Shown: positions 1,979-31,568 of the stretch, in pieces
Numbering within the stretch: the stretch's first letter is position 1
Layout: every line of letters starts with the position of its first letter
DNA from: Candidatus Peregrinibacteria bacterium Greene1014_49
GTDB taxonomy: Bacteria; Patescibacteriota; Gracilibacteria; Peribacterales; Peribacteraceae
Direction: 5' to 3'
Length of the DNA: 32,698 bases
Assembly: GCA_007376635.1 (NCBI GenBank)
Contig: VMGQ01000005.1
Coordinates: forward strand, 1 to 32,698
Notes under the pieces: model-generated
The model's input: only the letters and a program-made list of their open reading frames with translations
Databases searched by the model: none
What the model was told of the DNA's origin: nothing
Position numbers and translations under genes: made by a program

Positions 1979-2031
1979 AAGATACAAGATACAAGATACA
2001 AAAAAATCTTGTATCTTGTATCTTGTATCTT
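1979..2031. repeat. Inverted array of ATACAAG heptads: perfect 23-bp stem, 7-nt loop
   Basis: Left arm AAGATACAAGATACAAGATACAA (1979-2001), loop AAAAATC, right arm TTGTATCTTGTATCTTGTATCTT (2009-2031). Confidence 0.95.
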
Positions 2032-2039
2032 CAATCTCA

Positions 2040-3011
2040 ATGCCTAAGAAGAAAGCTATTATCACGGGAATCACTGGTCAGGACGGTTCGTATCTGGCAG
2101 AACTCCTGATTCAGAAAGATTACGAAATCCACGGTGTCGTCCGTCGCGCTTCCACTTTCAATCGTGGGCGCATCGATCATCTGAATTCGGATGAATCGAA
2201 TCCTGATTGCCTTGTCCATTTGCATTATGGAGATTTGGGAGACTCCAATTCCTTACTACGCATCATTCACGATGTGAAGCCCGATGAAATCTATAACCTT
2301 GCAGCACAGAGCCACGTAGGCGTCAGCTTTGAAATGCCGGAGTACACAGGAGACATCACGGCGCTCGGGACAACACGTCTCCTTGAGGCTCTTCGCACGA
2401 GCAAACTTCCTGCGAAGTTTTACCAAGCCAGCAGTTCCGAGCTCTATGGCAAGACCACTTCGGAGCGCCAGGATGAAGAGACACCGTTTTATCCACGCAG
2501 TCCGTATGGGTGTGCGAAGGCCTATGCCTACTATCTCACGAGGAACTATCGTGAGAGCTACGGAATGTACGCGGTGAATGGCATTCTTTTCAACCATGAA
2601 TCGCCGCGCCGAGGCGAAAACTTCGAAGCGAAGCGTGACTGGGGATACGCTCCGGAATTTGTCGAAGGCATGTGGAAGATGCTGCAGTGCCCGGAGCCAG
2701 AAGATTATGTGCTTGCGACAGGGCGCACGGCATCTGTCCGTGAGTTTTTGGAACTATGCATGAAGCATTTGCATATCAACTACGAACGAAAAGGATCTGG
2801 AAAAGACGAAACGTATACCGATACAAAGACGGGGAAAAAGATTGTTGCGCTCGATCCGCTGTATAACCGTCCTGCAGAAGTGGATTTCTTACTTGGGGAT
2901 GCATCAAAAGCAAAGAAGAAGCTGGGGTGGGAGGCGAAAACCAGTATCGAAGAGTTAGCAAAGATCATGTTAGAGGCGGATTGTAGGAAGCAGGGAGTCC
3001 AGTTGAATTAA
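2040..3011 (+). CDS. gmd: GDP-mannose 4,6-dehydratase
   Basis: [59 protein letters not shown]; start at ATG 2040 rather than ORF-track 2016. Confidence 0.95.
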
Positions 3012-3057
3012 GAATTAAGAACGTCTTCTTAATTCCTAATTCTTAATTCATAATTCT
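3006..3057. repeat. Inverted TTAATTC-type heptad array
   Basis: AATTAAGAATTAAGAA (3006-3021) pairs with TTCTTAATTCCTAATT (3026-3041, one mismatch); right arm continues CTTAATTCATAATTCTT. Left arm contains the gmd stop codon (3009-3011). Confidence 0.9.
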
Positions 3058-3063
3058 TCTCAG

Positions 3064-5691: not shown

Positions 5692-5694
5692 TGT

Positions 5695-6963: not shown

Positions 6964-6984
6964 GGGAAGAGTGTAGGGGAGGGT

Positions 6985-7053
6985 AGGAAGGGAAGAAAAG
7001 GCAGGAAAGGCAGAAAGGGCAGAAACGTTTTTTGCCTTTCCTACCTTTCTTGG
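6985..7053. repeat. Inverted AAAGGCAG-type purine/pyrimidine short-period array
   Basis: GGAAGAAAAGGCAGGAAAGGCAGAAAGGGCAGAAACG then TTTTTTGCCTTTCCTACCTTTCTTGG (near inverted repeat). Confidence 0.8.
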
Positions 7054-7069
7054 CCTACAGTTCCCCGGC

Positions 7070-7471: not shown

Positions 7472-7503
7472 GAAGGTTGCCGGAGAAGCTGTAAGCTTTG
7501 TGT

Positions 7504-9195: not shown

Positions 9196-12100
9196 TTAGC
9201 AAGTCGGGCTAAGTCCACAATGATCGCCATTTCTGATTAAACCTGAACTGCAACATGTTGGCATTCCATTGAGGCATACAGGGAAGGGGGTATCGGCTGC
9301 TGTACAGCGTGGCATCGCACCTGTGGGGCAGCTGACACGATCCATACCGTAACTAAAGCTACAAGTAGGATAGATCGGCCGTGTACAAACACTTGGAGAT
9401 CCTTGGCAACGCCAACCCGATTGTATCGCACACAAACTGGTACAGCCGTCGTTATCACTCGCATTCCCGTCATCACATGTCTCTCCAGCGTTGATCGCAC
9501 CGTTGCCACATATGCGGACACACACACTCGGCGTACCGGAACACGTATAACCTCCTTCTACGCCGCAGGTCGCACTACACCCATCATTTGCATTCGCATT
9601 ATTATCATCACAGATTTCGCCGGTATTGAGCACACCATTGCCGCAGATACGAACACACACACTGGGAGCGCCCGAGCAGGTATGACTCGTTTCAATGCTA
9701 CAGGTCAAATTGCACCCGTCTCCTGCAGTCCGGTTCCGATCATCACACGCTTCTCCTGTATTGATCACACCGTTCCCGCACGTGGGCAGACACACACTGG
9801 GCGAACCTGAGCACGTGTAATCCGGTTCGATTGCACAGGTTGCATTGCACCCGTCTCCTGTAGTCGGGTTCCGATCATCACAACTTTCCGTTCCCTGCAT
9901 AAAGCCATCTCCACAGGCTGGAAATTTACAGATATTGGTACAGCCATCCGTGTTGCTGGCATTGTTATCATCACATTCCTCGCCACGTTCGACGATACCG
10001 TTTCTGCATATCGAAAGGATCAACTTCTTGCAGCTCGGTAGAATGGTATTCGTGCTATCGACGGGAGCCGCTAAGAGCAGAGAGCCATCGTTGACCGTGT
10101 AGGCAGGATCATTATTGCTCTGGCGTTCTGCAAACATCGTATCCGTTCCGCCGTAGTGCACAATGTTCCCGATGCCGTTGGATGCGAATAGTTGGTTATC
10201 TGCTGAGACGAAGGATGGGGCAGAACCCGTCCTAAAATAGACGCCTGTTAGAAAACTATTCGGTGTTTCGATGTTCATGCGATACACCATAAAATTGGTC
10301 ACAAATCGCGGAAGCCCAACAACAAAAGCCTGTCCATTCGCTTCCATCGCCTGGAAGACTGTCTCGGGCATTGCTGCACCAACCGATTGCACATCGATGA
10401 TGGCATAGAGTGTATTTCCTCCCCACACAGCAGCTTTGAGTGGAAGGAGGCCTTGGGTATTGGCCGCAATGGCAATATTTGCGCCGAGGCGGCTCCATGT
10501 ATGGTCATTGTTATAGCGATAGACATTGCCGTAATTGCGCACGGCGGCATAGAGAACTCCATTGTGCTCGAGAAGATTGACGATATTCGGGGCGTTCGGG
10601 TTGATCACACTGGTGGGAACAAACGGAGTTCCAAGCCCTTCCCACTGTCCGTTTGCGTTGCGTCTGTAGACCATTGAATCTGTTTGAGTGATCGATCCTG
10701 CATAGGGTGCTGTTACAATCGCATAAAGTGTCCCGTTGATACTTTTCAAGGTGATACTTGATGATTGGATCTGGGCTTCCGTAATCCAGGAAACCCTGTT
10801 GCCATTTCTCATCAGCCTACGAATCCTATTATCAGTTGCCATGTACGCGGAATTATTAAAGGAAACAATCGAGGTCGTCGTCCCCGTAGTTTTTTTGATA
10901 GTTCCAAGTGGTACAGGGTTCACGCTATCGGTACACACCTCAGACAGTGAAACTGGGGAAGTGCAGCTCCCCGGTGCACACCAGTTAGGATCTATTTTGC
11001 ATTCCGGTGTGCAGGAATCTTCGTTGAGGAGATTGCCATCGTCACACTCTTCCGTTCCCTGAATAAAGCCGTCTCCGCAGGCTGGCAGTCTGCAAGCATT
11101 TGTACAGCCATCCGTGTTGATTTCATTCCTGTCATCGCACGTCTCGCCACTTTCGATGGCGCCGTTACCACAGAAGGGAATAACTAACTTTTTGCAGACA
11201 ACCAGAGCGGACTTAAATTCCGTCTGGAATGTCAGAGAGGTCGAGAGTATCAGTGGTCCTTCATCGAGTAAGCGGGGATTCGAAACGCCCCATAGGCCTG
11301 TATCCTGCCAAATTTGGGCGGCTGCATTGTACTGGAGGAGACTCGTGCCTCTGATGAAGGCAAAGGGTCTGTCTGCGATACTAAACAATTGAGGCTGTAG
11401 CACCGTAGAGTTCGGGTTTAATCGAGCGACGGTGGGAGTGGCTTCCACACGGGTATCGGTGAGAGGCACATCCGCACCCGGCTGATAGCGATAAACACCG
11501 TAAGGCTCTGTTGCGCTGTTACTTGCATCATATTTTCCGAGAAGAAGGAGCGCGTTTCCTGCACCCACCACGTTGGAAATGCGTCGCAGAGCGGCGGCAC
11601 CCGTATCGGCAACCCAAGTAGATCCATCCAATCGATGCATGGTATTTACCGTCATCGTTCCTTCTGTGACGGATCCGATCACGTACAGGCGATCATTGGT
11701 GTTTGTGAGCAACAAAGGATTACTCAGGGGAGATCCTACAGGTGCCCAATTGCGATTCCCGTTGTATTGATAGACGCGTCCATTGTGCGCGGCATAGAGG
11801 GTGCCTTTAAAATCGAGAATACTGTTGATTGGGGCGGATGATGGCGATTGCCATAGTGTGCCCAGATCTTCCCATATGCCTCCTGCTGTGCGCCGAAGGA
11901 TATTTCCTGTGGATCCAGGTTGGGAGATATCTCCAGAGCGGCCCCTTCTTATTGCATAGAGTCTCCCTCCGGTTTTGATCAGTGCCGCTCCTGGGCCTCC
12001 AAAGGTACTTGCGGTAGCTATTTGTGATAATCGTGCTTCCGCGACCCACGATGGTGTCTGGTTCACCTTGGTATACCGATAGATTGTAGGAATGAGCGTT

Positions 12101-16135: not shown

Positions 16136-17059
16136 TTAGGTATTTGCCGCGTACCACTCCACCGCCTTCTTGACCCCCTCCGCAAACGGTATTTTGGGAT
16201 CAAATCCAAAGGCTTTCTTGGCCTTCGAAATATCCGCCACATAGTGGATCACTTCGCCTGTCCGCGACTCTCCCAGTTCAATCTTGGACTTCGACCCTGT
16301 GAGTTCGATGATCATCTCCGCGAGTTTCAGAATCGTATTCCCTTCGCCAAAAGCGAGGTTGTAGGTGCCATTTTTTACAGCATCGAATTTTTCGAGAGCT
16401 TTGATTACACCATCGACAGCATCGTCGATGTAGGTGAAGTCGAGACATTTCTCTTTACCAAAAATTTTCAATGTTTCGTTCCTCCTTGCTTGGCGGATGA
16501 ACAGCGGTACCACGCGCACGGAGTTATCGTATGCGCCATACACATTGGAGAAGCGGATGATCACATGATCGATCCCGTAGCAGCGCGTGTAGGCATGTAC
16601 GAGCGCTTCGCCGCCGACTTTGCTTGCAGTGTACGGACTCTCGCAGTTCTCCACGCGTACGAGATCTTCAGTCAGTCGATCGACCTGAATATTGCCGTAC
16701 CCTTCACGGGAGCCTGCGAAGAAAAATTTCTTGATACCATTCTTTCTCGCGAGTTCCAGCGTATTAAACAGCGTGATGAAGTTATCCAGTGCGCGTGGAG
16801 GATCTTCCACAAGTTCATAGACACGGGCATTAGCGGCCAAGTGAATGATGACGTCGATGGGACGATTTGCAATTTGCAATTTGCAATTTGCGATTGCGGC
16901 CTCATCTCTCAAATCGACCAATATTGTGCGTTTATTCACTTCCGGGTTCCACTTATTTGGCAACCAGTCTGCGCCGATCACGTCATAGCCTTTGGCCAGA
17001 AGCGTTTCGCAGAGGCGGGTGCCGATGGTGCCTGACGAACCTGTTACAAGAATTTTCAT
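16136..17059 (-). CDS. NAD-dependent epimerase/dehydratase (UDP-glucose 4-epimerase-like SDR)
   Basis: MKILVTGSSGTIGTRLCETLLAKGYDVIGAD; YTASKVGGE; VIIRFSNVYG; contains repeat-derived peptide AAIANCKLQIAN. Confidence 0.88.
   Translation of the reverse strand: MKILVTGSSGTIGTRLCETLLAKGYDVIGADWLPNKWNPEVNKRTILVDLRDEAAIANCKLQIANRPIDVIIHLAANARVYELVEDPPRALDNFITLFNTLELARKNGIKKFFFAGSREGYGNIQVDRLTEDLVRVENCESPYTASKVGGEALVHAYTRCYGIDHVIIRFSNVYGAYDNSVRVVPLFIRQARRNETLKIFGKEKCLDFTYIDDAVDGVIKALEKFDAVKNGTYNLAFGEGNTILKLAEMIIELTGSKSKIELGESRTGEVIHYVADISKAKKAFGFDPKIPFAEGVKKAVEWYAANT
16863..16916. repeat. Intragenic ATTTGCA heptad tandem (about 4.5 copies)
   Basis: CGATTTGCAATTTGCAATTTGCAATTTGCGATTGCGG, with terminal CGATTTG/CAAATCG inverted pair; inside the 16136-17059 SDR CDS. 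Confidence 0.9.
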
Positions 17060-17066
17060 CCCACAT

Positions 17067-17100
17067 ACCGTAGCGGAGAGCCGCGGCTCTCCGCTACGGT
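17067..17100. repeat. Perfect 34-bp palindrome in divergent intergenic spacer
   Basis: ACCGTAGCGGAGAGCCG|CGGCTCTCCGCTACGGT, 17-bp arms with no loop. Confidence 0.97.
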
Positions 17101-17106
17101 ATTCCC

Positions 17107-19689: not shown

Positions 19690-20663
19690 AGGTGATAATA
19701 CTCGCGGTACCACTCTACAAACTTCTTCACGCCTTCCTCGATCCTCGTTTTTGGCTGATACTTGAGCATCTTCTGTGCCTTGGAGATATCCGCCGAAGTC
19801 GCAACCACGTCGCCCGGTTGCATCGGCAGGAATTCTTTCTTCCCTTCCTTTCCACATGCTTTTTCAATAGCTGCGACATAGTCCATGAGTTCCTCGGTCT
19901 TTCCGCCACCGAGGTTATAAATTGCATAGGAATCATTCCGGTCGATCGCGGCGATCACGCCGCTCACGATGTCGTCGATGTACGTGAAGTCGCGCCGCAT
20001 TTTTCCCTGACCGAAGATGGGCAGTGTTTTTCCGTGCATCACGGCATCGGTGAAAAGGAAGAGTGCCATGTCGGGGCGACCCCAGGGGCCGTAGACCGTG
20101 AAGAACCGAAGCCCCGTGCACGAGACTCCGTACATTTTATGATAGAGGTAGGCTTGGAGTTCGTTTGCTTTTTTCGTAAATCCGTAAATCGAAATCGGGT
20201 TATCCGTTCGGTGTTCCTCAGAGAAGGGTTGCTCTTTGTTATCTCCATAGACGGCGCTTGTGGAAGCGTAAATCAGACCGCCTACAGTATGCGTTCGACA
20301 TGCCTCAATCACCATGTTGTATCCGACGATATTGTCATGCAGGAAAATTCCAGGGTTATCGATGGAGTGTCGGACACCGGCTTGGGCGGCTAAATGACAG
20401 ACACGGGTGACGATTTGCGATTTGCCGCCGTTGTTTGTGAGAGCATCGAATGCTTCATCAAGAGCTTTTTGATCCGTGATGTCGCCGCGGACGAGGGTGA
20501 AATTCTTGTCTTTTTCCAAGATCGCGTTGCGTGCGACCTTGAGCGCGGGGTCGTAGTACTCATTGAAATTATCGATACCGATCACTTCGTCGCCGCGCTT
20601 GAGGAGGGCTTTTGCGACCGAGAAGCCGATGAAGCCGGCGGAACCGGTAACGAGGATGCGCAC
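19686..20663 (-). CDS. NAD-dependent epimerase (UDP-glucuronate 4-epimerase-like SDR)
   Basis: MRILVTGSAGFIGFSVAKALLKRGDEVIGIDNFNEYYDPALK; AAQAGVRHSIDNP; TSAVYG; RFFTVYGPWGRPDMALFLFT. Confidence 0.93.
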   Translation of the reverse strand: MRILVTGSAGFIGFSVAKALLKRGDEVIGIDNFNEYYDPALKVARNAILEKDKNFTLVRGDITDQKALDEAFDALTNNGGKSQIVTRVCHLAAQAGVRHSIDNPGIFLHDNIVGYNMVIEACRTHTVGGLIYASTSAVYGDNKEQPFSEEHRTDNPISIYGFTKKANELQAYLYHKMYGVSCTGLRFFTVYGPWGRPDMALFLFTDAVMHGKTLPIFGQGKMRRDFTYIDDIVSGVIAAIDRNDSYAIYNLGGGKTEELMDYVAAIEKACGKEGKKEFLPMQPGDVVATSADISKAQKMLKYQPKTRIEEGVKKFVEWYREYYHL

Positions 20664-20716
20664 AAAAGAAGCTTATAACTTTCCACTTTCGGCTTCTAGG
20701 TGCCTTTTGGTGAATA

Positions 20717-20749
20717 TTGACAAAATATTATATAGTTATATTATAATAT
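20717..20749 (+). promoter_or_regulatory. Putative sigma70-like promoter
   Basis: TTGACA followed by an AT-rich spacer (~19 nt) and TATAAT (..ttgacaaaatattatatagttatattataatatatag). Confidence 0.55.
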
Positions 20750-20784
20750 ATAGATGCTCATTTGCAGCATTGGCGGAATCAGAT

Positions 20785-20829
20785 GAGGCAGGCACAGTGG
20801 CGGCACTATGCCGTTAGCGTGCCTGTCTC
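20785..20829 (+). promoter_or_regulatory. Long 5'-leader hairpin upstream of small secreted-protein gene
   Basis: GAGGCAGGCAC (20785-20795) pairs with GTGCCTGTCTC (20819-20829) over 11 bp with one G-U; inner GGCGGC/GCCGTT stem with ACTAT loop. Confidence 0.65.
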
Positions 20830-20874
20830 AAGTGGTTTGGGACGACGAGTTACTCTTTTGTTCTGGAGACCATC

Positions 20875-21102
20875 ATGCGCAAGAAGTTGATTATCAGCAC
20901 TTTGATCACCTTTGTGATCTTTGGTACCTGGCACCTCATAAGGTCAAGTGGACACTTCATTTGTTGGGAGGGCACCTGCGTAGTAGTGCGCGGTCCTACC
21001 TATTACAAATGGGGATTCATCCCTGTGTACATCAATGAATGTGACCCATTCATTGGATGTGGCGACAACGATGGTAAACTTGAACCCGTGCCCATGCCCT
21101 GA
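20875..21102 (+). CDS. Small secreted/membrane-anchored Cys-containing protein (75 aa), unknown function
   Basis: MRKKLIISTLITFVIFGTWHLIRSSGHFICWEGTCVVVRGPTYYKWGFIPVYINECDPFIGCGDNDGKLEPVPMP; RBS-like GGAG 7 nt upstream; own promoter and terminator. Confidence 0.7.
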   Translation: MRKKLIISTLITFVIFGTWHLIRSSGHFICWEGTCVVVRGPTYYKWGFIPVYINECDPFIGCGDNDGKLEPVPMP

Positions 21103-21124
21103 TCCGTCGTCTGATTCGTCAGAC

Positions 21125-21156
21125 TACCCGGCTGCCGTGCGGCCGGGTTGTTTTTG
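21125..21156 (+). terminator. Rho-independent terminator
   Basis: ACCCGGC-tgccgtgcg-GCCGGGT followed by TGTTTTTG. Confidence 0.8.
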
Positions 21157-21167
21157 AATATCTACCT

Positions 21168-22478: not shown

Positions 22479-22527
22479 TGGTCGCAGTGTAGCGCTTGGC
22501 GATCGGTTTTGTAATATTTTGGGCAAC

Positions 22528-22599
22528 TTTGAGCTTTGAGCTGTAAGCTATGAGCGTTATCATTTCTTATGGCTCAAAGCTCAAAGCTCAAAGCTCATA
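22528..22599. repeat. Inverted AAAGCTC heptad array
   Basis: TTTGAGCTTTGAGCTGTAAGCTATGAG (22528-22554) versus CTCAAAGCTCAAAGCTCAAAGCTCATA (22573-22599), imperfect inverted repeat with a few mismatches. Confidence 0.85.
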
Positions 22600-23549
22600 A
22601 CTCTAAAATTCTTATCACTGGCTCCATCGCCTATGACCTTCTCCTCTCCTACGAAGGTTCATTCGCTGATGCACTTAAGCAAAAATCCATGGATCGTCTT
22701 TCGGTGAGCTTCTTTGCACCACACATGAAACGTCACCACGGGGGCACGGGATCCAACATCACATGGAACCTGCGGCTACTCGGCGGCGATCCGTTGCTGG
22801 TTGGCACCGTCGGTACCGATGGCGGCAGTTACTGTGCGCTTATGGAAGAGCGAGGGATCGATACGAAGCATGTTGAACGTCGGAAGGACAGCATTACGGC
22901 GACAGCGATCATTGGGACGGATAATGGCGAGAGGCAGATTGCATTTTTCCATCCCGGCGCGGATGCATTAGGCACTTGGCCTACTGCAACTCTCTCCGAT
23001 GACTGTGATGACATTGCATGGGCGATTGTCGGGGCGCGCAATCCCGTGCTCATGATGGAGGCAGTACGATGGTGCGACAAAGCAGGATTACCACTTCTTT
23101 TCGATCCTGCACAGCAGATCATTGCTCTGAGTACGGATGAATTGCGGTCTGCGGTCGCTGCGAGCCGGGGAGTTATCTGCAATGAATATGAATGGAGCGT
23201 GCTTTCGGAGAGGACGGAGATGCAGAAGAAAGACATCGTGAAGACAGCAGAATTCCTGATTGTTACATTGGGTGATAAAGGCGTTGCACTGCATTCCAAA
23301 AAAGGAACGGAGAATATTTCTGCATGCATCGCAGACCAGGTCGTGAATCCCACAGGAGCGGGGGATGCGTTCCGTGCAGGACTATTATTTGGTCTCGAAA
23401 AGAAGTGGGATCTCAGTGCTTGTTGCAAATTGGGAGCGGCAATGGGATCAAAAGTTGTGGAGATTGAGGGAACGTTGATGGAGAGTTTGGATCTTGAGGA
23501 AGTGTGGGAGCGGGCACGGAAAGCATATGGTGATGTGTTGCCCAAATGA
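22569..23549 (+). CDS. PfkB-family kinase, probable adenosine-kinase-like
   Basis: KILITGSIAYDLLLSYEGSF; RHHGGTGSNITWNLRLLGG; NPTGAGDAFRAGLLFGL (PfkB signature); adjacent to adenosylhomocysteinase. N-terminal MAQSSKLKAHNS is encoded by the repeat. Confidence 0.85.
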   Translation: MAQSSKLKAHNSKILITGSIAYDLLLSYEGSFADALKQKSMDRLSVSFFAPHMKRHHGGTGSNITWNLRLLGGDPLLVGTVGTDGGSYCALMEERGIDTKHVERRKDSITATAIIGTDNGERQIAFFHPGADALGTWPTATLSDDCDDIAWAIVGARNPVLMMEAVRWCDKAGLPLLFDPAQQIIALSTDELRSAVAASRGVICNEYEWSVLSERTEMQKKDIVKTAEFLIVTLGDKGVALHSKKGTENISACIADQVVNPTGAGDAFRAGLLFGLEKKWDLSACCKLGAAMGSKVVEIEGTLMESLDLEEVWERARKAYGDVLPK

Positions 23550-23557
23550 GGTTTTTA

Positions 23558-23675
23558 AAGATACAAGATGCAAGATACAAACAAATCCCAGATCCAAATC
23601 CTAAAGTCTCGAGTCGAGATTTGTAATTTTGGTGCTGAATCTTGTTTGTATCTTGCATCTTGTATCTTGTATCTT
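23558..23675. repeat. Inverted ATACAAG/ATGCAAG heptad array with perfect 27-bp arms and imperfect nested palindrome
   Basis: AAGATACAAGATGCAAGATACAAACAA (23558-23584) is the exact reverse complement of 23642-23668, plus one extra GTATCTT unit; centre contains TCTCGAGTCGAGA. Confidence 0.95.
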
Positions 23676-23682
23676 GCCACAG

Positions 23683-24936
23683 ATGTCTTATGTGAAAGAC
23701 CCTTCATTGGCTACTCAAGGAAAACTGAATCTCGAAATCGCCGAGAAGCGCATGGGTGCGCTCATGCTTTTGCGCGAACGTTTTGCCAAAGAAAAACCCT
23801 TCAAAGGTCTTACCATCGGCATGGCTCTGCATGTGACGAAAGAAACGGGAATATTAGTGCGAACCCTCAGAGATGGGGGGGCGAAAGTGGCGATCACCGG
23901 CTGCAATCCCTTGAGTACGCAAGATGACATCGCTGCGGCGCTCGCCGAGGAAGATGGTGTTCTTGTGTGGGCGTACAAGGGAGAGAGCACGGAAGATTAC
24001 TACAAGTTCCTCACGGCCGTCATCGAGACCGAGCCGGATATCACCATCGACGACGGATGCGACCTCGTGACGGAAATCCACACGAAGCATCCGCATCTTC
24101 TCGGAAAACTCATCGGAGGCTGCGAAGAGACGACGACCGGCATTATCCGTCTGCATTCGATGGTTCGTGATGGTGCGCTCAAAATTCCGATGATTGCGGT
24201 GAATGACAATAAAACGAAGCATCTTTTCGATAACTACTACGGCACCGGCCAGTCGACGTTCGATGGCATCCTCCGCGCAACCAATCTCCTGATCGCGGGC
24301 AAAGTCGTTGTCGTCGTCGGGTACGGCAGCTGCGGCAAAGGAATCGCAATGCGCGCCAAAGGACTCGGAGCCAATGTCGTTGTCACCGAAGTCGATGCTT
24401 TTGCAGCGCTTCAGGCTGCGATGGACGGACATCGTGTCTTACCTATGAGTGAAGCTGCTCCCATTGGCGATCTCTTCATCACGGTCACAGGAAATCTGAA
24501 TGTCATCCGCTACGAACACATCGAAACAATGAAAGACGGATCAGTCCTCGCAAATTCCGGACACTTCGACTGTGAGCTCGATTTGAAGGCTCTGGAAAAG
24601 ATGGCGCGCCGCAAGCGTCGTGTGCGGCATTATTTGGATGAATACATGCTTAAAGATGGTCGTATCATCTACGTTGCGGGAGAGGGGAGGCTCGTGAACC
24701 TGGCGTCCGCCGAGGGGCATCCGAGCGAAGTGATGAGTATGAGTTTCCTCGGGCAGGCGTTTGCCTGTGAGTATCTCGTAAAGAACAAGGGCAAGCTCAA
24801 GCCCGAAGTCATCACACTTCCCGCAGAGATCGATGAGCAGATCGCTGCGGCGCAGCTTGCGATTATGGGAGTGAAGATAGATCGGCTGACCACTGAGCAG
24901 GAGGAGTATTTGAAGAGTTGGAAGGAGGGGACGTAG
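23683..24936 (+). CDS. ahcY: Adenosylhomocysteinase (S-adenosyl-L-homocysteine hydrolase)
   Basis: MSYVKDPSLATQGKLNLEIAEKRMGAL..; GYGSCGKGIAMRAKGLGANVVVTEVDAFAALQAAMDGHRVLPM; NSGHFDCELDL; EGRLVNLASAEGHPSEVM. Confidence 0.95.
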   Translation: MSYVKDPSLATQGKLNLEIAEKRMGALMLLRERFAKEKPFKGLTIGMALHVTKETGILVRTLRDGGAKVAITGCNPLSTQDDIAAALAEEDGVLVWAYKGESTEDYYKFLTAVIETEPDITIDDGCDLVTEIHTKHPHLLGKLIGGCEETTTGIIRLHSMVRDGALKIPMIAVNDNKTKHLFDNYYGTGQSTFDGILRATNLLIAGKVVVVVGYGSCGKGIAMRAKGLGANVVVTEVDAFAALQAAMDGHRVLPMSEAAPIGDLFITVTGNLNVIRYEHIETMKDGSVLANSGHFDCELDLKALEKMARRKRRVRHYLDEYMLKDGRIIYVAGEGRLVNLASAEGHPSEVMSMSFLGQAFACEYLVKNKGKLKPEVITLPAEIDEQIAAAQLAIMGVKIDRLTTEQEEYLKSWKEGT

Positions 24937-24939
24937 CAC

Positions 24940-24970
24940 CCTCACCCAACCCTCTCCCACGGGGAGAGGG
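24940..24970. repeat. CCCTCACCCAACCCTCTCCC-ACGGGGAGAGGG dispersed-repeat-like element
   Basis: CCTCTCCC..GGGGAGAGG inverted arms; I recognise this string type from many bacterial intergenic regions (memory, not searched). Confidence 0.7.
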
Positions 24971-25042
24971 ATAGTTAGATTGGATGCTTTTCATGAAAAC
25001 TTTATAATGGTGATTTGCCTTACCGAGAAACATCCACCGTAG

Positions 25043-25063
25043 AGACGCAACGCTGTTGCGTCT
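25043..25063. repeat. AGACGCAAC-GCT-GTTGCGTCT hairpin (dispersed-repeat-like)
   Basis: Perfect 9-bp arms, 3-nt loop, followed by TCTTGTTTGTTT. Confidence 0.75.
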
Positions 25064-25118
25064 TCTTGTTTGTTTATATTTCCAACAACAATCCCTCTAT
25101 CTTTCATCCATTAGCCAA

Positions 25119-25189
25119 AATACCCCCCTACACCCCGTACCGCTGCGCCGGTACAGGGGTATTGACAGACAGGAAAACCTCACTAGAAT
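25119..25189 (+). promoter_or_regulatory. Hairpin abutting a sigma70-like promoter (TTGACA-16-TAGAAT)
   Basis: AATACCCC (25119-25126)/GGGGTATT (25156-25163) enclosing GTACCG/CGGTAC; -35 TTGACA 25162-25167 overlaps the hairpin 3' arm; -10 TAGAAT 25184-25189. Confidence 0.55.
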
Positions 25190-25459
25190 GCCTGTAACGT
25201 GAACGCTCCCCATTTCCTCTTTCCGGCACGTTTCATTCGCTGCTTTAAGCAGTCGGAAGGGATTGCGTAAAGAGTATTCCGGAGAGAGAAGCTTCCCTTC
25301 CCACCCCCAAGGAAGGCGCTTTGTGGTTGATCATTTACATCATCGAACAATGAGAAACCTGCTCTGAACTTTCGTTGGATACGGAGTTCAATAGGGAGCC
25401 CTCGGGCTTCTATTCCCATTCCGGGAAGAGTCAGGACTATATTTTGTGGGAGTTCGCTT

Positions 25460-25597
25460 ATGACCTCGAGACGGAAGAAGCACGTCACTGCAGTACGCTT
25501 AGCGATGGGCACCAATGCCACCGAGGAGGACGCCCTTGTCGTTCTCAAAAAAGAAAAGAAACTTCGCAAGGCTGCAAAGCCGCGCACCCCCCGCTGA
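25460..25597 (+). CDS. Candidate 45-aa basic microprotein (below ORF-track cutoff)
   Basis: ATG..TGA: MTSRRKKHVTAVRLAMGTNATEEDALVVLKKEKKLRKAAKPRTPR*; purine-rich GTGGGAG upstream. Confidence 0.4.
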   Translation: MTSRRKKHVTAVRLAMGTNATEEDALVVLKKEKKLRKAAKPRTPR

Positions 25598-25731
25598 ACG
25601 CTGCACTCCCCACTTGTTCGGATCGATTGTCGATCCACCTTTTGCTGCCGAGTTCTATCCACGGACTCGGCAGCTATCTTCAGATTAGGTTTCTCTTTGC
25701 TCCTTTCCATCATCACTTCGCCCCAAACGAT

Positions 25732-25829
25732 CTGTCCTGACTTGTTCAGCGACAGAAGGGGAAGCCTGTACTGCAATCACTCGGTCATTTCTGCAGTACA
25801 GGTGGGGTCTCTTTGAGACCCCTTCCCCT
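25732..25829 (+). ncRNA. Candidate structured RNA element: hairpin plus three-way junction
   Basis: CTGTCCTGA/TCAG(c)GACAG hairpin; closing stem AGGGGAA (25757-25763)/TTCCCCT (25823-25829); arm 1 CCTGTACTGCA/TGCAGTACAGG (25765-25775/25792-25802); arm 2 GGGGTCTC-ttt-GAGACCCC (25804-25822). Confidence 0.5.
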
Positions 25830-25872
25830 CTTTTCAGAGCAGATCGTTTGTAGCTTTTCCCCCTTCCATTCC

Positions 25873-26268
25873 ATGTCTGGTTCCGAGCTCCCTGCTGAAG
25901 ATGTTGATCTCGTCGACACTTCGAATGACACGCACTCAAGCCATCCTCTTGTTGCTTCTTTAAGTACGCGTCTCCGGGAATTATTGGAGCAGCATTCAGG
26001 TGATGAAGAACTTCGTGCTTGTATTGAGCAGACAGCGGGCGGTTTGCGCTTGAGCATGGTTGAAGAGATCACGCGAGTGAATGGAGCAGGACTATCAGTG
26101 ATGGCAGGAAGACGTTTCGAAAAGGATATCGACCAATTGGAGTATGATTCCAGAAGGGCATTAAAAAATGCGCTGAAACGCTCCAAAGTGAATTCTTCTC
26201 AGAATGAACGAGCGCGGCAACGAAGGGATATGGGCGACAGATTTGATAGAGATCGCCCGACGGCGTAG
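25873..26268 (+). CDS. Hypothetical protein, charged, likely helical (131 aa)
   Basis: MSGSELPAEDVDLVDTSNDTHSSHPLVASLSTRLRELLEQHSGDEELRACIEQ..; internal ATG preferred because upstream codons overlap the structured element. Confidence 0.55.
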   Translation: MSGSELPAEDVDLVDTSNDTHSSHPLVASLSTRLRELLEQHSGDEELRACIEQTAGGLRLSMVEEITRVNGAGLSVMAGRRFEKDIDQLEYDSRRALKNALKRSKVNSSQNERARQRRDMGDRFDRDRPTA

Positions 26269-26280
26269 TAGAATGTTTGT

Positions 26281-27264
26281 GTGGTGCACAACGCCAAGAT
26301 CGCCGCGCTCTTCCGTCAAATCGCTGCCCTCCTCCAAGCAGGTGCGGGCATGGAAGATGCAAACGTGACGTTCAAAATCCGCGCGTATCTTCGTGCGGCA
26401 AAAACCATTGAAGAATTACCGGAGGATGTGAGTACCTATGGCGGTGTGAAGGAATTGAAGGCACTCCCTGGCATCGGTGAGGCGACAGCTAAAAAGATTG
26501 TGGAATATTTGGAGAAAGGAACAATGGAAGCACTTGAAAAGCTGCGGCGCAGCAGTGGGGGAGTGAGTGCAGAGCTGATGGGTGTGGAAAACCTTGGACC
26601 CAAGCGTGCTATTCTTATTCAGAAAGAACTAGGCATTACTACAGTTCCAGAGCTTATAGCCGCTGCTAAGGCCGGAAAGCTACGGTCACTTTCTCGTTTT
26701 TCTGAAGTCATCGAAAAGAAGATTCTGGAGAGTGCCGGCCGCTCGAAAGAGAGATCCACTCGGTTTGCCAGGGAGAGTGTGGAAGGTGATGTGGAAATAT
26801 TATTGAGGAACGTTCGTAGTGTTCCGGGTGTGCAACGTGCGGAAGCTGCCGGATCGTATCGGCGCAGGCAGACGACCGTCGGCGATATAGATATTCTTGT
26901 GGTCACAAAATCACCTACTGCCGTTTCGGAGGCGATTTCCAATCTACCATTTGTCCGTAACATCGTTGCGCAAGGTGACAAGAAATTATCTTTCGATCTG
27001 CAATCTGGGATTCGGGTCGATGTCCGGTTCGTATCCAAAGATCAATGGGGATCTGCCCTGCTTTACTTCACTGGATCCAAAGAACACAACATCGCCATGC
27101 GCATCGTCGCGATCAAGAAAGGGTGGAAACTCAGCGAGTACGGATTATTTGATGCGAAAGGGAAGGTGATTGCTTCAAAGGAAGAGAGGGATATTTATGA
27201 GAAACTAGGGCTGGAGTATCGGGAACCGTGGGAAAGGACGGGGGAATTGATAATTGAAAATTAG
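26281..27264 (+). CDS. DNA polymerase X family (pol beta-like), without a PHP domain
   Basis: HhH LPGIGEATAKKIVEYL; catalytic GDIDILVVTKS; IRVDVRF; WGSALLYFTGSKEHNIAMRIVAIKKGWKLSEYGLF; ~327 aa, ends ..PWERTGELIIEN. Confidence 0.9.
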   Translation: MVHNAKIAALFRQIAALLQAGAGMEDANVTFKIRAYLRAAKTIEELPEDVSTYGGVKELKALPGIGEATAKKIVEYLEKGTMEALEKLRRSSGGVSAELMGVENLGPKRAILIQKELGITTVPELIAAAKAGKLRSLSRFSEVIEKKILESAGRSKERSTRFARESVEGDVEILLRNVRSVPGVQRAEAAGSYRRRQTTVGDIDILVVTKSPTAVSEAISNLPFVRNIVAQGDKKLSFDLQSGIRVDVRFVSKDQWGSALLYFTGSKEHNIAMRIVAIKKGWKLSEYGLFDAKGKVIASKEERDIYEKLGLEYREPWERTGELIIEN

Positions 27265-27277
27265 ATGCACAATGAGA

Positions 27278-27302
27278 GCACCCATTCCTGGGTGCGGTTT
27301 TT
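27278..27302 (+). terminator. Rho-independent terminator after the PolX gene
   Basis: GCACCCA-ttcc-TGGGTGC-GGTTTTT. Confidence 0.8.
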
Positions 27303-27305
27303 GGT

Positions 27306-27399
<94 letters not shown>

Positions 27400-27462
27400 G
27401 TGCAGGGAACTGTAACAAATATTCCGCGTAACGCATTATGAATTCTTCAGGTAATCACAAAT

Positions 27463-27488
27463 AGCCGCACCCCTGCAGGGGTGCGGCT
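27463..27488 (-). terminator. Perfect 26-bp palindrome, possible terminator of the 27529-27777 gene
   Basis: AGCCGCACCCCTG|CAGGGGTGCGGCT; followed on the minus strand by ATTTGTGATT. Confidence 0.5.
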
Positions 27489-27528
27489 AGTGCAAGGGTG
27501 CGGTTACGAATGATATTCCTACGATCGA

Positions 27529-27777
27529 CTATTTCTTATCGTGACCGCATACGCAGCACAACATCTTCGTGCAGAATGCGATATTGATCGCAAAGGCAAT
27601 GAGCGCGAGAGAAGCGCCGCTGCCGCCGAAGGCGATGCCGCCACTCGTAAGGTGCGTATTCACGACACCCATCATCGCAGCGAGCGACGTGAGCAGGAGC
27701 AGAAAGGCCACAAGGCCGAGGAAAACGGAGCATGCGCTCGCAGAGCCGGTGGTGTTCTTCTTTTTAAGGAGAGTCAT
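27529..27777 (-). CDS. Small two-TM membrane protein with C-terminal Cys cluster
   Basis: MTLLKKKNTTGSASACSVFLGLVAFLLLLTSLAAMMGVV..ASLALIAFAINIAFCTKMLCCVCGHDKK; the ORF-track upstream extension is antisense to pheT. Confidence 0.65.
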   Translation of the reverse strand: MTLLKKKNTTGSASACSVFLGLVAFLLLLTSLAAMMGVVNTHLTSGGIAFGGSGASLALIAFAINIAFCTKMLCCVCGHDKK

Positions 27778-27833
27778 AGTGGATGTGAGGGTAGCGTATA
27801 CTCCTACACTCGTCCACTGATACACTCCTATCG

Positions 27834-30254
27834 ATGAAGCTCTCTCTGCACTGGCTTTCAGATTATGTGACTTTCGGGATCTCCGATCCCGAGGAGATTG
27901 CTCGTCGCCTGACAGCGCATGTCGGCGAAGTCGATGAGATTGAAATTCAAGGTAAGTACTTAAAAGATTGCTGCGTTGGAAAAGTGCGCAACCTTCGCAA
28001 GCATCCGAATGCGGATAAGCTGAATCTCTGTGAAGTCGAAACGGATCGCGGTGTAAAAAATATTGTTTGCGGCGGAACGAACCTGCGCGAAGGAATGCTC
28101 GTAGCATTTGCTCACGTGGGAGCCACGGTTCGGCATGGAAATGAAGAGATCGTATTACGTGAAGCGAAGATTCGGGGGGAAATAAGTGAGGGGATGATCT
28201 GTGCTGCGGAAGAGCTGGAACTGGAGGCGATGTTTCCAGCAAAGAAGGAAGAGGGGGAAAGGCCAGTGATCGATTTGCGATTTGCGATTGATGATTTGCG
28301 ATTTGGTGCTCCATTGAGAGAGGCATTGGGAATGGATGATGTCATCTTTCATATCGATAATCATGCGATTACGCACAGGGCGGATCTGTTTTCGCATATC
28401 GGATTTGCGCGGGAATGCTGCGCGATGGGGATTGCGACGTGGAAGAAACCCTTCGAATCCGCTCAGGGCAGGCAGCCAGAGTTTAAGAGTCCGAAATTCA
28501 CAAAGACCGCATTGCCATTCCAATTTCTTGTGGAGGAGAAAAAACTGATGCCGCGGTACTGTGCATGTGTCGTCGAGGTAGATAGCATCGGCGAAACGCC
28601 GGAGTGGATGAAAAAGCGTTTGCAGGCTGTGGGATGGCGGTCGATCAGTCTGCCGGTCGATATCACCAACTATGTGGCAGCCGAAGTCGGCGTGCCGCTG
28701 CACAGCTTCGATCTTGATGATCTCAAGGGTGATGTGCACATGCGCAAAGCCAAGGAGGGGGAAAAGATCGTTACACTCGATGGCAAGGAGTGGAAACTTC
28801 CCGCGGGCGCATTGGTGCTCAGTGATGAAGAGGGCATCTTTGACATGCTTGGGATTATGGGAGGACTCCGGAGCTCCACGAAGCCCTCGACGCGAAGAAT
28901 TTATCTGCACAGCGCATCGCTCGATCCGGTTTCCATCCGCTCTACGGTCATCGCAACCGGGCACCGGACGGATGCGGCGACGGTGTATGAAAAGAGCGTG
29001 CCGCATATCACGACCGAACAAGGGTTCCTCCGCGCATTGGAGTTGCTTCTGGAGCTTGCCCCGGGTGCGCGGGTTGCATCGAAGCTGGAATCCGTGGGTG
29101 ATAATGGAACCGCAAAATCCATTACATTTTCTGCTGCGTATTGCGAGGGGAGACTGGGTGCGGATATCACGGAGAAGACGATCGTGAAGATTTTGGAGGA
29201 TCTGGGATGCACAGTAAAAGGGGAGAAAAGGCAGAAAGGGGAGGAAGGTGCCACACTCTCTGTAACGCCACCACTGTGGAGATTGAAAGATCTTAAAGGG
29301 CAGCATGATCTTTCCGAAGAAGTTGGCCGCATCTACGGCTACGACAAGATTCCGGTCACTATTCCGGAAGGTTCTATCACACCTCCTGCGCGTGATCAGC
29401 GCATTCATCATCTGCGCGATGCTCTTAGAGCACTCGGATATTTTGAATTACTGCCGCTTTCCCTGCTAAGTCCGGAATTGGTGAAAAAGTGCAATATGGA
29501 TCCGGAGCAGTGCGTGCAGCTAGGCAATCCGATTGGTGAAGAAGTGAGTCTTTTGCAGCCGTGTGTGATGCCGCAGCTTCTAGAACATGCATCGCACAAT
29601 ATGCTGCGCGTTGATGACGCACTTAAAACATTCCATTGGGGTAATATTTTTACTCCCAATGGCCAGGTGCTCGCTTTCGGAGCATTGCTTGCCAGTCGCA
29701 TCGAGACGACCCCTGCGACCGAACCATTCCTACGTCTCAAGCGGGATATCACTGCGGCGTTCAATCACGTTGGATACATTGCTGAACTGGAGCCAAGTAA
29801 AGGACAGCTGAATGCCGTCGCGCATCCGGGTCGCAGTGCATCCATTTTTGTTGCTAAAAAGGAAGTGGGTGCTTTGTTTGAGGTGCTCCCCGCTGTCCGC
29901 GAGCGCTTCGACCTGCCACATCGGACTGCTGCGGTGACGATCAATCTCGATGCACTGCTCGCGATTGCTCCGAGTCCTCGCCATGCCAAGTCCGTCCCAC
30001 AATATCCGGCGATTACCTACGACGTGACGATGACGTTGGATCGGAGCAAGGCATTACAGAAGATTCTCGCAAAGATCCGTACATCGTCACCACTTCTGGA
30101 ATCCGTTGAAGTTGCCGATATCTACAGCGGCAAGCCCCTGCAGAAGGAGCAGTACAATGTGACGGTGCGGTGCACGTATCGTTCGGCAGAAAGGACGTTG
30201 ACGGAGGAGGAGGTGAAGAAGGCTCATGAAAATCTTATGAAGGGGGTGGCCTGA
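27834..30254 (+). CDS. pheT: Phenylalanine--tRNA ligase beta subunit
   Basis: MKLSLHWLSDYVTFG; EMF-type tRNA-binding domain (VGKVRNLRKHPNADKLNLCEVETD); B3/B4 and B5 regions; C-terminal anticodon-binding domain (SVPQYPAITYDVTMTLDRS). Confidence 0.95.
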   Translation: MKLSLHWLSDYVTFGISDPEEIARRLTAHVGEVDEIEIQGKYLKDCCVGKVRNLRKHPNADKLNLCEVETDRGVKNIVCGGTNLREGMLVAFAHVGATVRHGNEEIVLREAKIRGEISEGMICAAEELELEAMFPAKKEEGERPVIDLRFAIDDLRFGAPLREALGMDDVIFHIDNHAITHRADLFSHIGFARECCAMGIATWKKPFESAQGRQPEFKSPKFTKTALPFQFLVEEKKLMPRYCACVVEVDSIGETPEWMKKRLQAVGWRSISLPVDITNYVAAEVGVPLHSFDLDDLKGDVHMRKAKEGEKIVTLDGKEWKLPAGALVLSDEEGIFDMLGIMGGLRSSTKPSTRRIYLHSASLDPVSIRSTVIATGHRTDAATVYEKSVPHITTEQGFLRALELLLELAPGARVASKLESVGDNGTAKSITFSAAYCEGRLGADITEKTIVKILEDLGCTVKGEKRQKGEEGATLSVTPPLWRLKDLKGQHDLSEEVGRIYGYDKIPVTIPEGSITPPARDQRIHHLRDALRALGYFELLPLSLLSPELVKKCNMDPEQCVQLGNPIGEEVSLLQPCVMPQLLEHASHNMLRVDDALKTFHWGNIFTPNGQVLAFGALLASRIETTPATEPFLRLKRDITAAFNHVGYIAELEPSKGQLNAVAHPGRSASIFVAKKEVGALFEVLPAVRERFDLPHRTAAVTINLDALLAIAPSPRHAKSVPQYPAITYDVTMTLDRSKALQKILAKIRTSSPLLESVEVADIYSGKPLQKEQYNVTVRCTYRSAERTLTEEEVKKAHENLMKGVA
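28271..28305. repeat. Intragenic ATTTGCG-type heptad array within pheT
   Basis: CGATTTGCGATTTGCGATTGATGATTTGCGATTTGG encodes IDLRFAIDDLRFG. Confidence 0.85.
28449..28473. repeat. Second intragenic dispersed-repeat-like segment in pheT
   Basis: CCCTTCGAATCCGCTCAGGGCAGGC encodes PFESAQGR; resembles the CTTCGACT(C/T)CGCTCAGG(G/A)CAGGC string seen in many genomes (memory). Confidence 0.6.
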
Positions 30255-30256
30255 CC

Positions 30257-30338
30257 ATTTATGATTGACGATTGATGATTTACGATTTGCTGTTTGCAGC
30301 TGTAAATCGTAAATTCACAAATTGTAAATCGTAATCGG
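30257..30338. repeat. Inverted AAATCGT-type heptad array
   Basis: ATGATTGACGATTGATGATTTACGATTTGCTG..TGTAAATCGTAAATTCACAAATTGTAAATCGTAATC. Confidence 0.85.
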
Positions 30339-30354
30339 TTATACTGCTAAGCCC

Positions 30355-30909
30355 ATGTCCATTGTTACCAAAACCGGCGATACAGGAATGACAGGACTCT
30401 ATGGTTCGCGTCGCGTTTCCAAAGCCAATGCCCGCATCAATGCCTATGGCACTGTCGATGAATTAAATGCAGTATTGGGCGTGGTGTTGGCCGAAGTGGA
30501 TCTGCCCATTGTCATTCGCTGGCAACTCACTGCTGCACAGAATGCGTTGTTCATCGTCGGAAGCGATCTGGCGACGCCGGATGTCGCTGTTTCTGTTCCG
30601 CGCGTACTGCCCGAGCACACCGCTGCCGTGGAGCGATGGATTACAGCATTAGAATCATCATTGCCGCCTCAAAGAAAATTTCTTCTTCCGAGTGGCTCAA
30701 GGACGGGAGCATTGCTGCATCAGGCACGGAGCGTGTGCCGGCGCAGCGAGCGGTGCGTTGTGTTCCTTGCTGAGAAAGAGGGGACTACTACAGAAGTGCA
30801 GATGTATCTGAATCGGCTTGGTGATTATTTGTTTCTTGCAGCACGCTCAGCGAATATCGCTCACGGATGTCCGGAGATGGAAGTGGATTATGAGGGGTGG
30901 GATGCCTGA
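30355..30909 (+). CDS. Cob(I)alamin adenosyltransferase, PduO type
   Basis: MSIVTKTGDTGMTGLYGSRRVSKANARINAYGTVDELNAVLG; ARSVCRRSERCVV; YLNRLGDYLFLAARSAN. Confidence 0.92.
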   Translation: MSIVTKTGDTGMTGLYGSRRVSKANARINAYGTVDELNAVLGVVLAEVDLPIVIRWQLTAAQNALFIVGSDLATPDVAVSVPRVLPEHTAAVERWITALESSLPPQRKFLLPSGSRTGALLHQARSVCRRSERCVVFLAEKEGTTTEVQMYLNRLGDYLFLAARSANIAHGCPEMEVDYEGWDA

Positions 30910-31229
30910 GGCACGGGCAGGATTGTCCAAAAATTTAGTATTACCAATGCGGCGAATATTGCGATGAGCGGAATCGCAATAATGATCAGCTTTACCCAAG
31001 ATGCTTTTTCTCCATGATGCACTGTCCGGTAGAAACTCGTGCCACCATAGAGGATTCCAACGAGTGCCAGCGGTAGATCTGCAACTTGCATCCACCAACC
31101 CGGCCAGACGCCGCCGATGCTATTTCTGAGCAGCAGGTATCCGAGGAAATAGCTTCCGGCGAGGAGGGAGAAGAGGGTGCCGGTGAGGCGTTGGAGGAAG
31201 AGGGACATCGGGAGGATTGTAGCACCCAT
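30888..31229 (-). CDS. Small polytopic membrane protein, unknown function
   Basis: Several hydrophobic segments; convergent 22-bp overlap with the ATR gene; alternative start at 31208. Confidence 0.6.
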   Translation of the reverse strand: MGATILPMSLFLQRLTGTLFSLLAGSYFLGYLLLRNSIGGVWPGWWMQVADLPLALVGILYGGTSFYRTVHHGEKASWVKLIIIAIPLIAIFAALVILNFWTILPVPQASHPS

Positions 31230-31236
31230 CTCAGGA

Positions 31237-31313
31237 CAAATTTACGATGTACGATTTCTGATTTACGATTGCAAATCGTAAATCATCAATACCAAATCGT
31301 AAATCGTGTTATT
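31237..31313. repeat. Inverted AAATCGT-type heptad array
   Basis: TGATTTACGATT-GCA-AATCGTAAATCA core hairpin (31259-31285) plus flanking degenerate units. Confidence 0.88.
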
Positions 31314-31477
31314 TCCATTTCTTCATATTCACCACCACCCTCTTTCTCCCCTGTGCACGTCGCCTATTCAGGACTTTGCGTCCATTCGGTGTCTTGCTCC
31401 TGCGAAGGAACCCGTGCCGACGTACCCGTTTTCTCCAGCGTAATTTGGCTAACATTGCTGGCGTAGCGTAGCGAAAA

Positions 31478-31568
31478 AATGGAGAATGGAAAGTGAAAAG
31501 TGACAAAATACGCGTAATTCTCCATTCTCCGGCCTTCGCCACGGCTACGGCCGGCAAGCCATTCTCCA
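31478..31568. repeat. Composite repeat: GGAGAATG inverted arms around a CCGGCCTTCGCCACGGCTACGGCCGGCAAGCC element
   Basis: AATGGAGAAT (31478-31487)/ATTCTCCATT (31517-31526), third copy CCATTCTCCA (31559-31568), flanking a GC-rich palindromic segment. Confidence 0.8.

What the first reader, a model, noticed from the sequence alone, without database searches (positions are those of the whole stretch)
1979..31568. Family of heptad-period inverted repeats with locus-specific unit sequences
At least nine places carry tandem units of about 7 bp, mostly arranged as two facing arms: ATACAAG (1979-2031, 23558-23675), TTAATTC (3006-3057), AAAGGCAG-like (6985-7053), ATTTGCA (16863-16916), AAAGCTC (22528-22599), ATTTGCG (28271-28305), AAATCGT (30257-30338, 31237-31313), GGAGAATG (31478-31568). 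The architecture is conserved while the unit sequence differs. This looks less like copies of one transposed element and more like either several subfamilies or a local, sequence-agnostic amplification process such as hairpin-templated slippage. Cyanobacterial heptameric STRRs and REP/RPE elements are partial precedents; I do not know of a description for this lineage.
Basis: partly seen in the sequence, partly recalled or inferred. Interest (0 to 1): 0.85.

Follow-up and report, generated by a model that had tools for sequence, protein, structure and literature searches.

The report
Self-spreading seven-letter DNA repeat blocks
A little-studied group of tiny bacteria (Peribacteria) carries many short blocks made of a seven-letter DNA word repeated about four and a half times; related species keep the blocks in the same places, even inside essential genes, but fill those places with different words, which points to an unusually fast copy-and-overwrite process that I did not find described.

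Summary
In 342 kb of this Peribacteria genome there are 31 period-7 arrays against 0 in Markov controls; periods 8 and 9 give 4 and 5. The arrays have a preferred length of 32 bp, four units plus four bases, and few short ones, so they are not ordinary slippage tracts. Close pairs nearly always face each other (42 inverted, 1 direct). Units form genome-wide word families, and imperfect blocks recur at unrelated loci (31 pairs, null mean 6.7). About 40% of arrays lie inside genes. At 31 of 75 orthologous coding slots the other species also has an array (control windows 39/1176), yet 0 of 31 share the unit. Arrays differ internally by 5.7%, while four-fold sites between the species are only about 42% identical, so arrays are young or continually homogenised and slots are refilled. 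RAYT transposases do not track array density and sit beside other REPs; reverse transcriptases are absent from several array-rich genomes. Best explanation: short word blocks spread in trans by templated copy-and-overwrite, probably microhomology-guided. The pattern is well supported; the enzyme is unknown. Closest precedent: Xanthomonas GGGAATC repeats.

The parts
1977..2037 (.). two-arm heptad element, unit AAGATAC (arms 1977-2001 and 2006-2037, 4-nt loop), between divergent genes
   Evidence: same word at the orthologous spacer of G003 (#0)
3005..3058 (.). two-arm element, unit TTAATTC (TAATTCN: TAATTCC, TAATTCT, TAATTCA)
   Evidence: G003 spacer carries AATTAGC (#1)
6985..7053 (.). related two-arm element with mainly 9-bp period (AGAAAAGGC)
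16865..16895 (-). single-arm array ATTTGCA inside an epimerase gene (16136-17059, minus); G003 and G001 lack it and are 3 aa shorter there
20411..20425 (-). short remnant (two CGATTTG units) in a second epimerase gene; the orthologous slot is a full array in G003 (CGATTTG) and G001 (GGTTCCT)
   Evidence: (#39)
22527..22597 (.). two-arm element, unit AAAGCTC; the right arm overlaps the start of the pfkB-family gene (ATG at 22569)
23558..23676 (.). two-arm AAGATAC element with a 73-nt interior; similar elements in G000 C59 and in G002
28271..28305 (+). single-arm array CGATTTG inside pheT; arrays of other words at the same slot in three congeners and in a different genus, degenerate G-rich heptads in a fourth congener
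30252..30334 (.). two-arm element, unit GATTTAC/AAATCGT; orthologous spacers: same word in G003, GTATTAN in G002, AATTGAN in G001
31240..31307 (.). two-arm element, unit AAATCGT, downstream of rpmH
31476..31568 (.). imperfect two-arm element AATGGAG/AATGGAA upstream of rpmH, right arm split; similar word kept in the congeners

Best explanation
These are short, quickly turning-over blocks of heptad 'words'. A block is (4-nt core + 3-nt spacer) x4 + core, about 32 bp, used mostly alone inside genes and often as two facing arms between genes. SHOWN: period 7, the preferred length, facing arms, genome-wide word families, recurrence of imperfect blocks at unrelated loci, conserved slots whose words differ between species, and arrays with far less internal divergence than the species have diverged. 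INFERRED: a block is copied in trans from one array to other places, where it overwrites about 20-30 bp of resident DNA; it survives only where sequence is unconstrained (spacers, protein loops), so permissive slots are refilled again and again with whatever words are abundant in that genome. The most likely route is short-patch, microhomology-guided templated replacement by short single-stranded DNA (as in short-patch double illegitimate recombination; own knowledge). The 7-nt period would come from re-priming on the 4-nt core, and facing arms from snap-back copying. Absence of MutS in the family may permit this but does not explain which genomes are rich.
For: Period specificity. Length peak at 32 bp with secondary peaks at 25 and 39, length mod 7 = 4 in 56 of 141. 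In 46 distinct 32-bp arrays core mismatch is 30/552 and spacer mismatch 53/552. Pairs: 42 inverted against 1 direct, 5' arm G>C in 34 of 42. Identical-unit pairs 33 against 1.1 (G000) and 132 against 4.7 (G003); no short-range clustering of words in G003, p = 0.32. Imperfect 24-mers shared at different loci: 31 pairs against a null mean of 6.7, maximum 13, with flank identity at random level in nearly all listed pairs. Slots: 31/75 against 39/1176 control windows, 0/31 same unit. Four-fold-site identity 0.42 (G000-G003) and internal array divergence 5.7%. Net length change against array-less orthologs is mostly -2 to -5 aa, so the array largely replaces sequence. MutS_I absent in 20 of 20 genomes, control positive in 11 of 14. 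Words are genome-specific: AATTCGG x3 has 40 placements in G003, 3 in G000 and 0 in ten others.
Against: No enzyme or donor molecule was identified and no event was caught between near-identical strains (one genome per species is held). Some intergenic elements keep the same word in orthologous spacers (AAGATAC; the array upstream of rpmH), so not all are quickly replaced. Shared imperfect blocks could partly reflect recurrent unit alleles. The core/spacer contrast is modest and slightly favoured by the delimitation rule. Slot comparisons count some slots from both species, so 31 is not 31 independent slots. One clear intergenic gain (G003 L123:12320-12392 against G000) is an insertion, not a replacement.
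Confidence: 0.45

Rival explanations
1. Local replication slippage with 7-nt steps plus hairpin-templated correction builds each array from local sequence (first reader's second option; the polymerase-footprint idea reported for heptamers).
For: Heptamers are over-represented in many bacteria and slippage was proposed (PMC4692102, PMC4679880). Period is strict, and arms match within an element. The pheT array of G000 starts on the locally conserved Asp-Leu codons.
Against: The length distribution peaks at 32 bp with few short arrays. Words are shared across unlinked loci, and imperfect blocks recur. In genes each 7-bp slip would shift the frame, yet slots keep near-constant length while words differ completely.
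Confidence: 0.2
2. A dedicated but unrecognised transposase or integrase moves about 32-bp arms (or two-arm hairpins) as miniature elements, recognising period and structure instead of a fixed sequence.
For: Discrete size, facing arms with a fixed polarity, dispersal in trans, one clear empty intergenic site (#136), and AAGATAC elements with partly similar interiors.
Against: No constant terminal motif or target duplication was seen at block edges; single arms in genes replace instead of purely inserting; dozens of unrelated words in one genome.
Confidence: 0.2
3. REP/MITE-type elements mobilised by RAYT (Y1) transposases.
For: Intergenic hairpins; Y1_Tnp genes occur in this genus.
Against: G011 has 8 arrays in 20 kb and G022 10 in 60 kb, both with no Y1_Tnp found, while G007 (9 Y1 matches), G035 (8) and G018 (4) have 1, 1 and 0 arrays in 20 kb. 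The two Y1 genes of this genome lie beside GTAGAGACG and GCCGCAC hairpins that recur elsewhere, with no heptad array in the 2 kb held around each.
Confidence: 0.04
4. Functional sites (regulatory or nucleoid/uptake binding sites) selected for a heptad layout, for example translation control just upstream of start codons as proposed for TAACTGA repeats in Beggiatoaceae.
For: Many window arrays end 7-20 bp before a start codon; slots are conserved.
Against: Word identity is not conserved at orthologous slots and many words coexist; about 40% lie inside unrelated genes; intergenic classes show no strong bias (39 co-directional, 15 divergent, 8 convergent against 400, 159, 135 spacers).
Confidence: 0.08

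Closest known systems
GGGAATC heptamer repeats of Xanthomonas and GGGGA(C/T)T of Nostoc (PMC4692102)
   Same: Heptamers with one or two variable positions; the majority in Xanthomonas have four units; 70 and 75 facing (convergent) pairs; generally no link to insertion sequences; 90% lie between the same genes in two species while the pattern varies.
   Different: One G-rich word per lineage there, dozens of words here; up to 26 units there, sharp 32-bp length here; only 7-11% intragenic there, about 40% here; I saw no word replacement at coding slots described.
TAACTGA direct repeats of Beggiatoaceae, also in Cyanobacteria and Bacteroidetes (PMC4679880)
   Same: Heptamers, two to six copies in Maribeggiatoa, mostly just upstream of start codons.
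   Different: A single word; 169 sets direct and one indirect in that genome, so facing pairs are essentially absent.
Cyanobacterial STRRs and long heptameric simple sequence repeats (via PMC4692102 and PMC4679880)
   Same: Period 7, dispersed, mostly intergenic.
   Different: Comparators sampled here (Mycetohabitans 116 bp, Isosphaera 172 bp) are long expandable tracts, not 32-bp blocks.
REP/BIME elements with RAYT transposases
   Same: Small dispersed intergenic hairpins.
   Different: Fixed sequence family and cognate transposase; here many words and no association.
Short-patch double illegitimate recombination in Acinetobacter baylyi (own knowledge; paper not held)
   Same: Short templated overwriting of resident DNA by intragenomic segments at microhomologies.
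   Different: Rare clustered mutations there; here a genome-wide, self-reinforcing accumulation of periodic blocks.

Membership tests
Heptameric simple sequence repeats (STRR/LSSR) | tandem 7-bp units in excess of chance | tested here: met
Heptameric simple sequence repeats (STRR/LSSR) | open-ended copy-number distribution expected from slippage | tested here: not met
   peak at 32 bp, few shorter than 25
Xanthomonas-type GGGAATC repeats | about four units, often as facing pairs | tested here: met
   PMC4692102
Xanthomonas-type GGGAATC repeats | single G-rich word able to form quadruplexes | tested here: not met
   many words, mostly A+T-rich cores
REP/RAYT | conserved palindrome sequence family | tested here: not met
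REP/RAYT | cognate Y1 transposase nearby or correlated with density | tested here: not met
MITE | conserved termini and target-site duplication | tested here: inconclusive
   no constant edge motif by inspection of all delimited arrays; no duplication evident at the one clear empty site (#136), too few cases
Reverse-transcriptase-made repeats (DGR, retron, telomerase-like RT) | RVT_1 reverse transcriptase in the genome | tested here: not met
   none found in G000, G001, G003, G004, G011, G022, G031
DNA uptake sequences (DUS/USS) | one short sequence over-represented genome-wide and shared by close relatives | tested here: not met
   many words; orthologous coding slots never share the word
Short-patch double illegitimate recombination | intragenomic template segments at unrelated loci | tested here: met
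Short-patch double illegitimate recombination | microhomology at both edges and dependence on ssDNA-processing genes | not testable with these tools
   needs near-identical strains or an experimental system; DprA is present in 19 of 20 genomes

The most novel reading that the evidence does not exclude
A previously undescribed genome-wide copy-and-overwrite process: about 32-bp heptad word blocks replicate selfishly in trans, fill many unconstrained stretches including loops of essential proteins, and compete as words, so that each species writes its own vocabulary into the same slots.
Probability: 0.4. Interest if true: 0.9.

Novelty: new variant of a known kind. Interest (0 to 1): 0.74.

Why it matters
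Why heptamers dominate bacterial simple repeats has been open since they were noticed; replication slippage is the standing guess. Peribacteria give a case where slippage alone can be argued against from length distribution, shared words and frame-preserving replacement inside genes. If the overwrite reading holds, these arrays mark a mutational process strong enough to rewrite protein loops in essential genes such as pheT, and a natural system for short templated DNA replacement. It also gives a practical warning: repeated peptides in such proteins (KSQIANR, NSEFGIR, SGKWKVE) are DNA-level products, not protein repeats.

Tried and rejected
RAYT/REP link: rejected. Reverse transcriptase origin: rejected for several array-rich genomes. 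MutS loss as the cause of differences between genomes: MutS_I is absent from poor and rich genomes alike. DprA: present in 19 of 20, no pattern. Local (distance-dependent) copying: not seen in G003. A hypervariable seventh position (6+N rule): true for some words (GTATTAN, TAATTCN, GTAGGGN; 17 arrays against 8.9 expected) but not general. Rfam: only a tRNA. Intrinsic terminators: the consensus scan of 20000-32698 did not call any of the heptad stems; one hit (23604-23622) lies in the loop of the 23558-23676 element. One word (GATTTGC) in 287 genomes of the phylum: only this genome and single hits in two others. One word in viral contigs: a single contig. A peptide search in plasmids gave hits that I sampled only in part; those sampled were long or unrelated repeats. 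Ten paper searches found no description for this lineage.

Full report
WHAT IS THERE. The window is contig C6 of a 1.36-Mb, 105-contig genome assembly. The nearest named relatives are Candidatus Peribacteria. In the window only period 7 (and its harmonic 14) exceeds controls, apart from one period-9 array at 6997-7025. In 342 kb of the same genome there are 31 strict period-7 arrays against 0 in third-order Markov sequence, with 4 at period 8, 5 at period 9 and almost none at other periods apart from the harmonic 14. The congener G003 is denser: 43 arrays in 118 kb. E. coli K-12 has none in 100 kb. Other genera of the family range from 0 to 40 per 100 kb in small samples, and other families of the class gave 2 in 200 kb.

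ARCHITECTURE. With a detector that needs only 11 exact lag-7 matches (18 bp), and so does not favour long arrays, lengths still peak at 32 bp (25 of 107), with secondary peaks at 25 and 39; length mod 7 equals 4 in 40 of 107, and in 56 of 141 with a second detector. The array is therefore core4-spacer3 repeated four times and closed by the core. In 46 distinct 32-bp arrays the interior core positions mismatch the consensus in 30 of 552 cases and the spacer positions in 53 of 552, a modest difference. Two neighbouring arrays within 180 bp that share a word (up to two mismatches) face each other in 42 of 43 cases, and the upstream arm has G over C in 34 of 42. Loops range from none to about 170 nt. 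About 77 of 180 arrays lie well inside open reading frames, mostly as single arms.

WORDS. The unit differs between loci, but a genome uses a limited vocabulary. Pairs of loci with the identical unit: 33 against 1.1 expected from composition-matched 7-mers in G000, 132 against 4.7 in G003. Whole-genome pattern searches agree: AATTCGG x3 has 40 placements in G003, 3 in G000 and none in ten other genomes; AAATCGC x3 has 19 in G000, 15 in G003, 8 in G002, 2 in G011; reversed-pattern controls are zero. Loci with the same word are not clustered within a few kb in G003 (p = 0.32). Blocks carrying the same imperfections recur at loci with unrelated flanks; counting imperfect 24-mers shared between different loci gives 31 pairs, against a mean of 6.7 and maximum of 13 when the same number of substitutions is placed at random. 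One example: the first 26 bp of the pheT array of this genome (28271-28296) recur in an epimerase gene of G003. So the words travel in trans.

SLOTS. The strongest result comes from orthologs. Inside pheT, three congeners have arrays at the same codons and the same length with other units (AAATTGA in G002, AAGTGGA in G003, GAATGGA in G001); the fourth (G004) has degenerate G-rich heptads there. A genus with 55% identical PheT (G033) has AGCTACG x4 in the same loop, while many other genera have a plain DLGDGDDGVG-type loop. Over all coding arrays, 31 of 75 orthologous slots in another species also carry an array, against 39 of 1176 control windows of the same genes; none of the 31 shares the unit within one mismatch, where shuffled pairing gives about 3. 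Some slots are counted from both species. In G003 and the different genus G022 (gene 49% identical) two slots of one gene carry GGAAAGT and TTTCCAC in one and GGGCTAT and CAGCTCA in the other. Four-fold degenerate sites between G000 and G003 are 42% identical, near saturation, while arrays differ from their own consensus by 5.7%. An ancestral array left to drift would be unrecognisable, so arrays must be young or continually homogenised, and the slot is filled repeatedly. Against orthologs without an array the net length change is mostly 2-5 residues, so the array mainly replaces sequence. Intergenic elements are more conservative: the AAGATAC element at 1977-2037 and the array near 31478 keep their word in some relatives, while the spacer after pheT has AAATCGT in G000 and G003, GTATTAN on both arms in G002, and AATTGAN in G001.

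HOW IT MIGHT WORK. Steps shown: strict period, preferred length, facing arms, shared vocabulary, recurring imperfect blocks, conserved slots with different words, low internal divergence. Steps inferred: blocks are copied from existing arrays into other places and overwrite 20-30 bp; only permissive places survive; the abundance of a word sets its chance of being copied, so each species drifts to its own vocabulary. The likeliest molecular route is annealing of short single strands through short matches, with the repeated 4-nt core offering many anchors, extension that re-primes on the core in 7-nt steps, and snap-back copying for facing arms. Short-patch double illegitimate recombination in Acinetobacter is the closest described process (own knowledge; the papers are not held). 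MutS is missing in all 20 family genomes searched, which may permit this but does not explain differences in density.

WHAT IT IS NOT. Not REP/RAYT: array-rich G011 and G022 have no Y1 transposase match, and genomes with eight or nine have few arrays in the sample; the two Y1 genes of this genome sit beside GTAGAGACG and GCCGCAC hairpins, which look like its REPs. Not made by a reverse transcriptase of the RVT_1 kind: none is found in seven genomes that include the richest. Not ordinary slippage tracts: long heptamer tracts in Mycetohabitans and Isosphaera reach 116-172 bp, whereas here length is bounded, although G031 has three arrays of 65-74 bp. Not a protein-level repeat: the DNA period is 7, it occurs in spacers, and words change completely between orthologs.

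AGAINST THE KNOWN. Rehm et al. 2015 (PMC4692102) describe GGGAATC repeats in Xanthomonas with mostly four units, 70-75 facing pairs, location between the same genes in two species, no general link to mobile elements, and no function assigned; they cite the 2007 survey that found heptamers over-represented and proposed a polymerase footprint. MacGregor 2015 (PMC4679880) describes TAACTGA repeats upstream of start codons. These cover the period, the copy number and the facing pairs. The large vocabulary, the coding slots and the word replacement are not in the passages I read, and ten literature searches found nothing for this lineage. I therefore call it a new variant of a known kind, with a real chance that the underlying process is new.

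LIMITS. Genomes are draft assemblies held one per species and unnamed, so no recent event could be caught. Sampling was partial, and some density figures rest on 20 kb. Gene calls are simple open-reading-frame calls. The mechanism is inference.

Noticed in passing
window 25039-25064; L038:262-287: GTAGAGACG...CGTCTC hairpin family (15 pattern hits in the sampled genome), one copy beside a Y1 transposase gene (C76): looks like the cognate REP of a RAYT.
   Followed up: partly
window 27462-27489; L037:675-698; L155:1983: GCCGCAC...GTGCGGC perfect hairpins, also beside the other Y1 transposase gene (C21) and beside a Y1 gene in G002: a second REP/RAYT pair.
   Followed up: partly
window 17065-17102: Perfect 38-bp palindrome ATACCGTAGCGGAGAGCCG/CGGCTCTCCGCTACGGTAT without a loop between two divergent genes; no other copy of CCGTAGCGGAGAG in the sample.
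   Followed up: partly
window 9196-16032 (minus): About 2,280-residue protein with 16 DUF4215 cysteine-rich repeats plus FG-GAP and Kelch-like stretches: a giant probable surface protein.
   Followed up: partly
L193 (G031 C22) 9423-9575 and 17662-17895: In one other genus arrays of GTATTAC/ACGTAGT type reach 65-74 bp in facing pairs, unlike the 32-bp norm; may show what happens when the length limit is lost.
   Followed up: no
G011 (whole genome search): DprA is present in 19 of 20 family genomes, but was not found in G011, the genome with the densest 20-kb sample of arrays.
   Followed up: no
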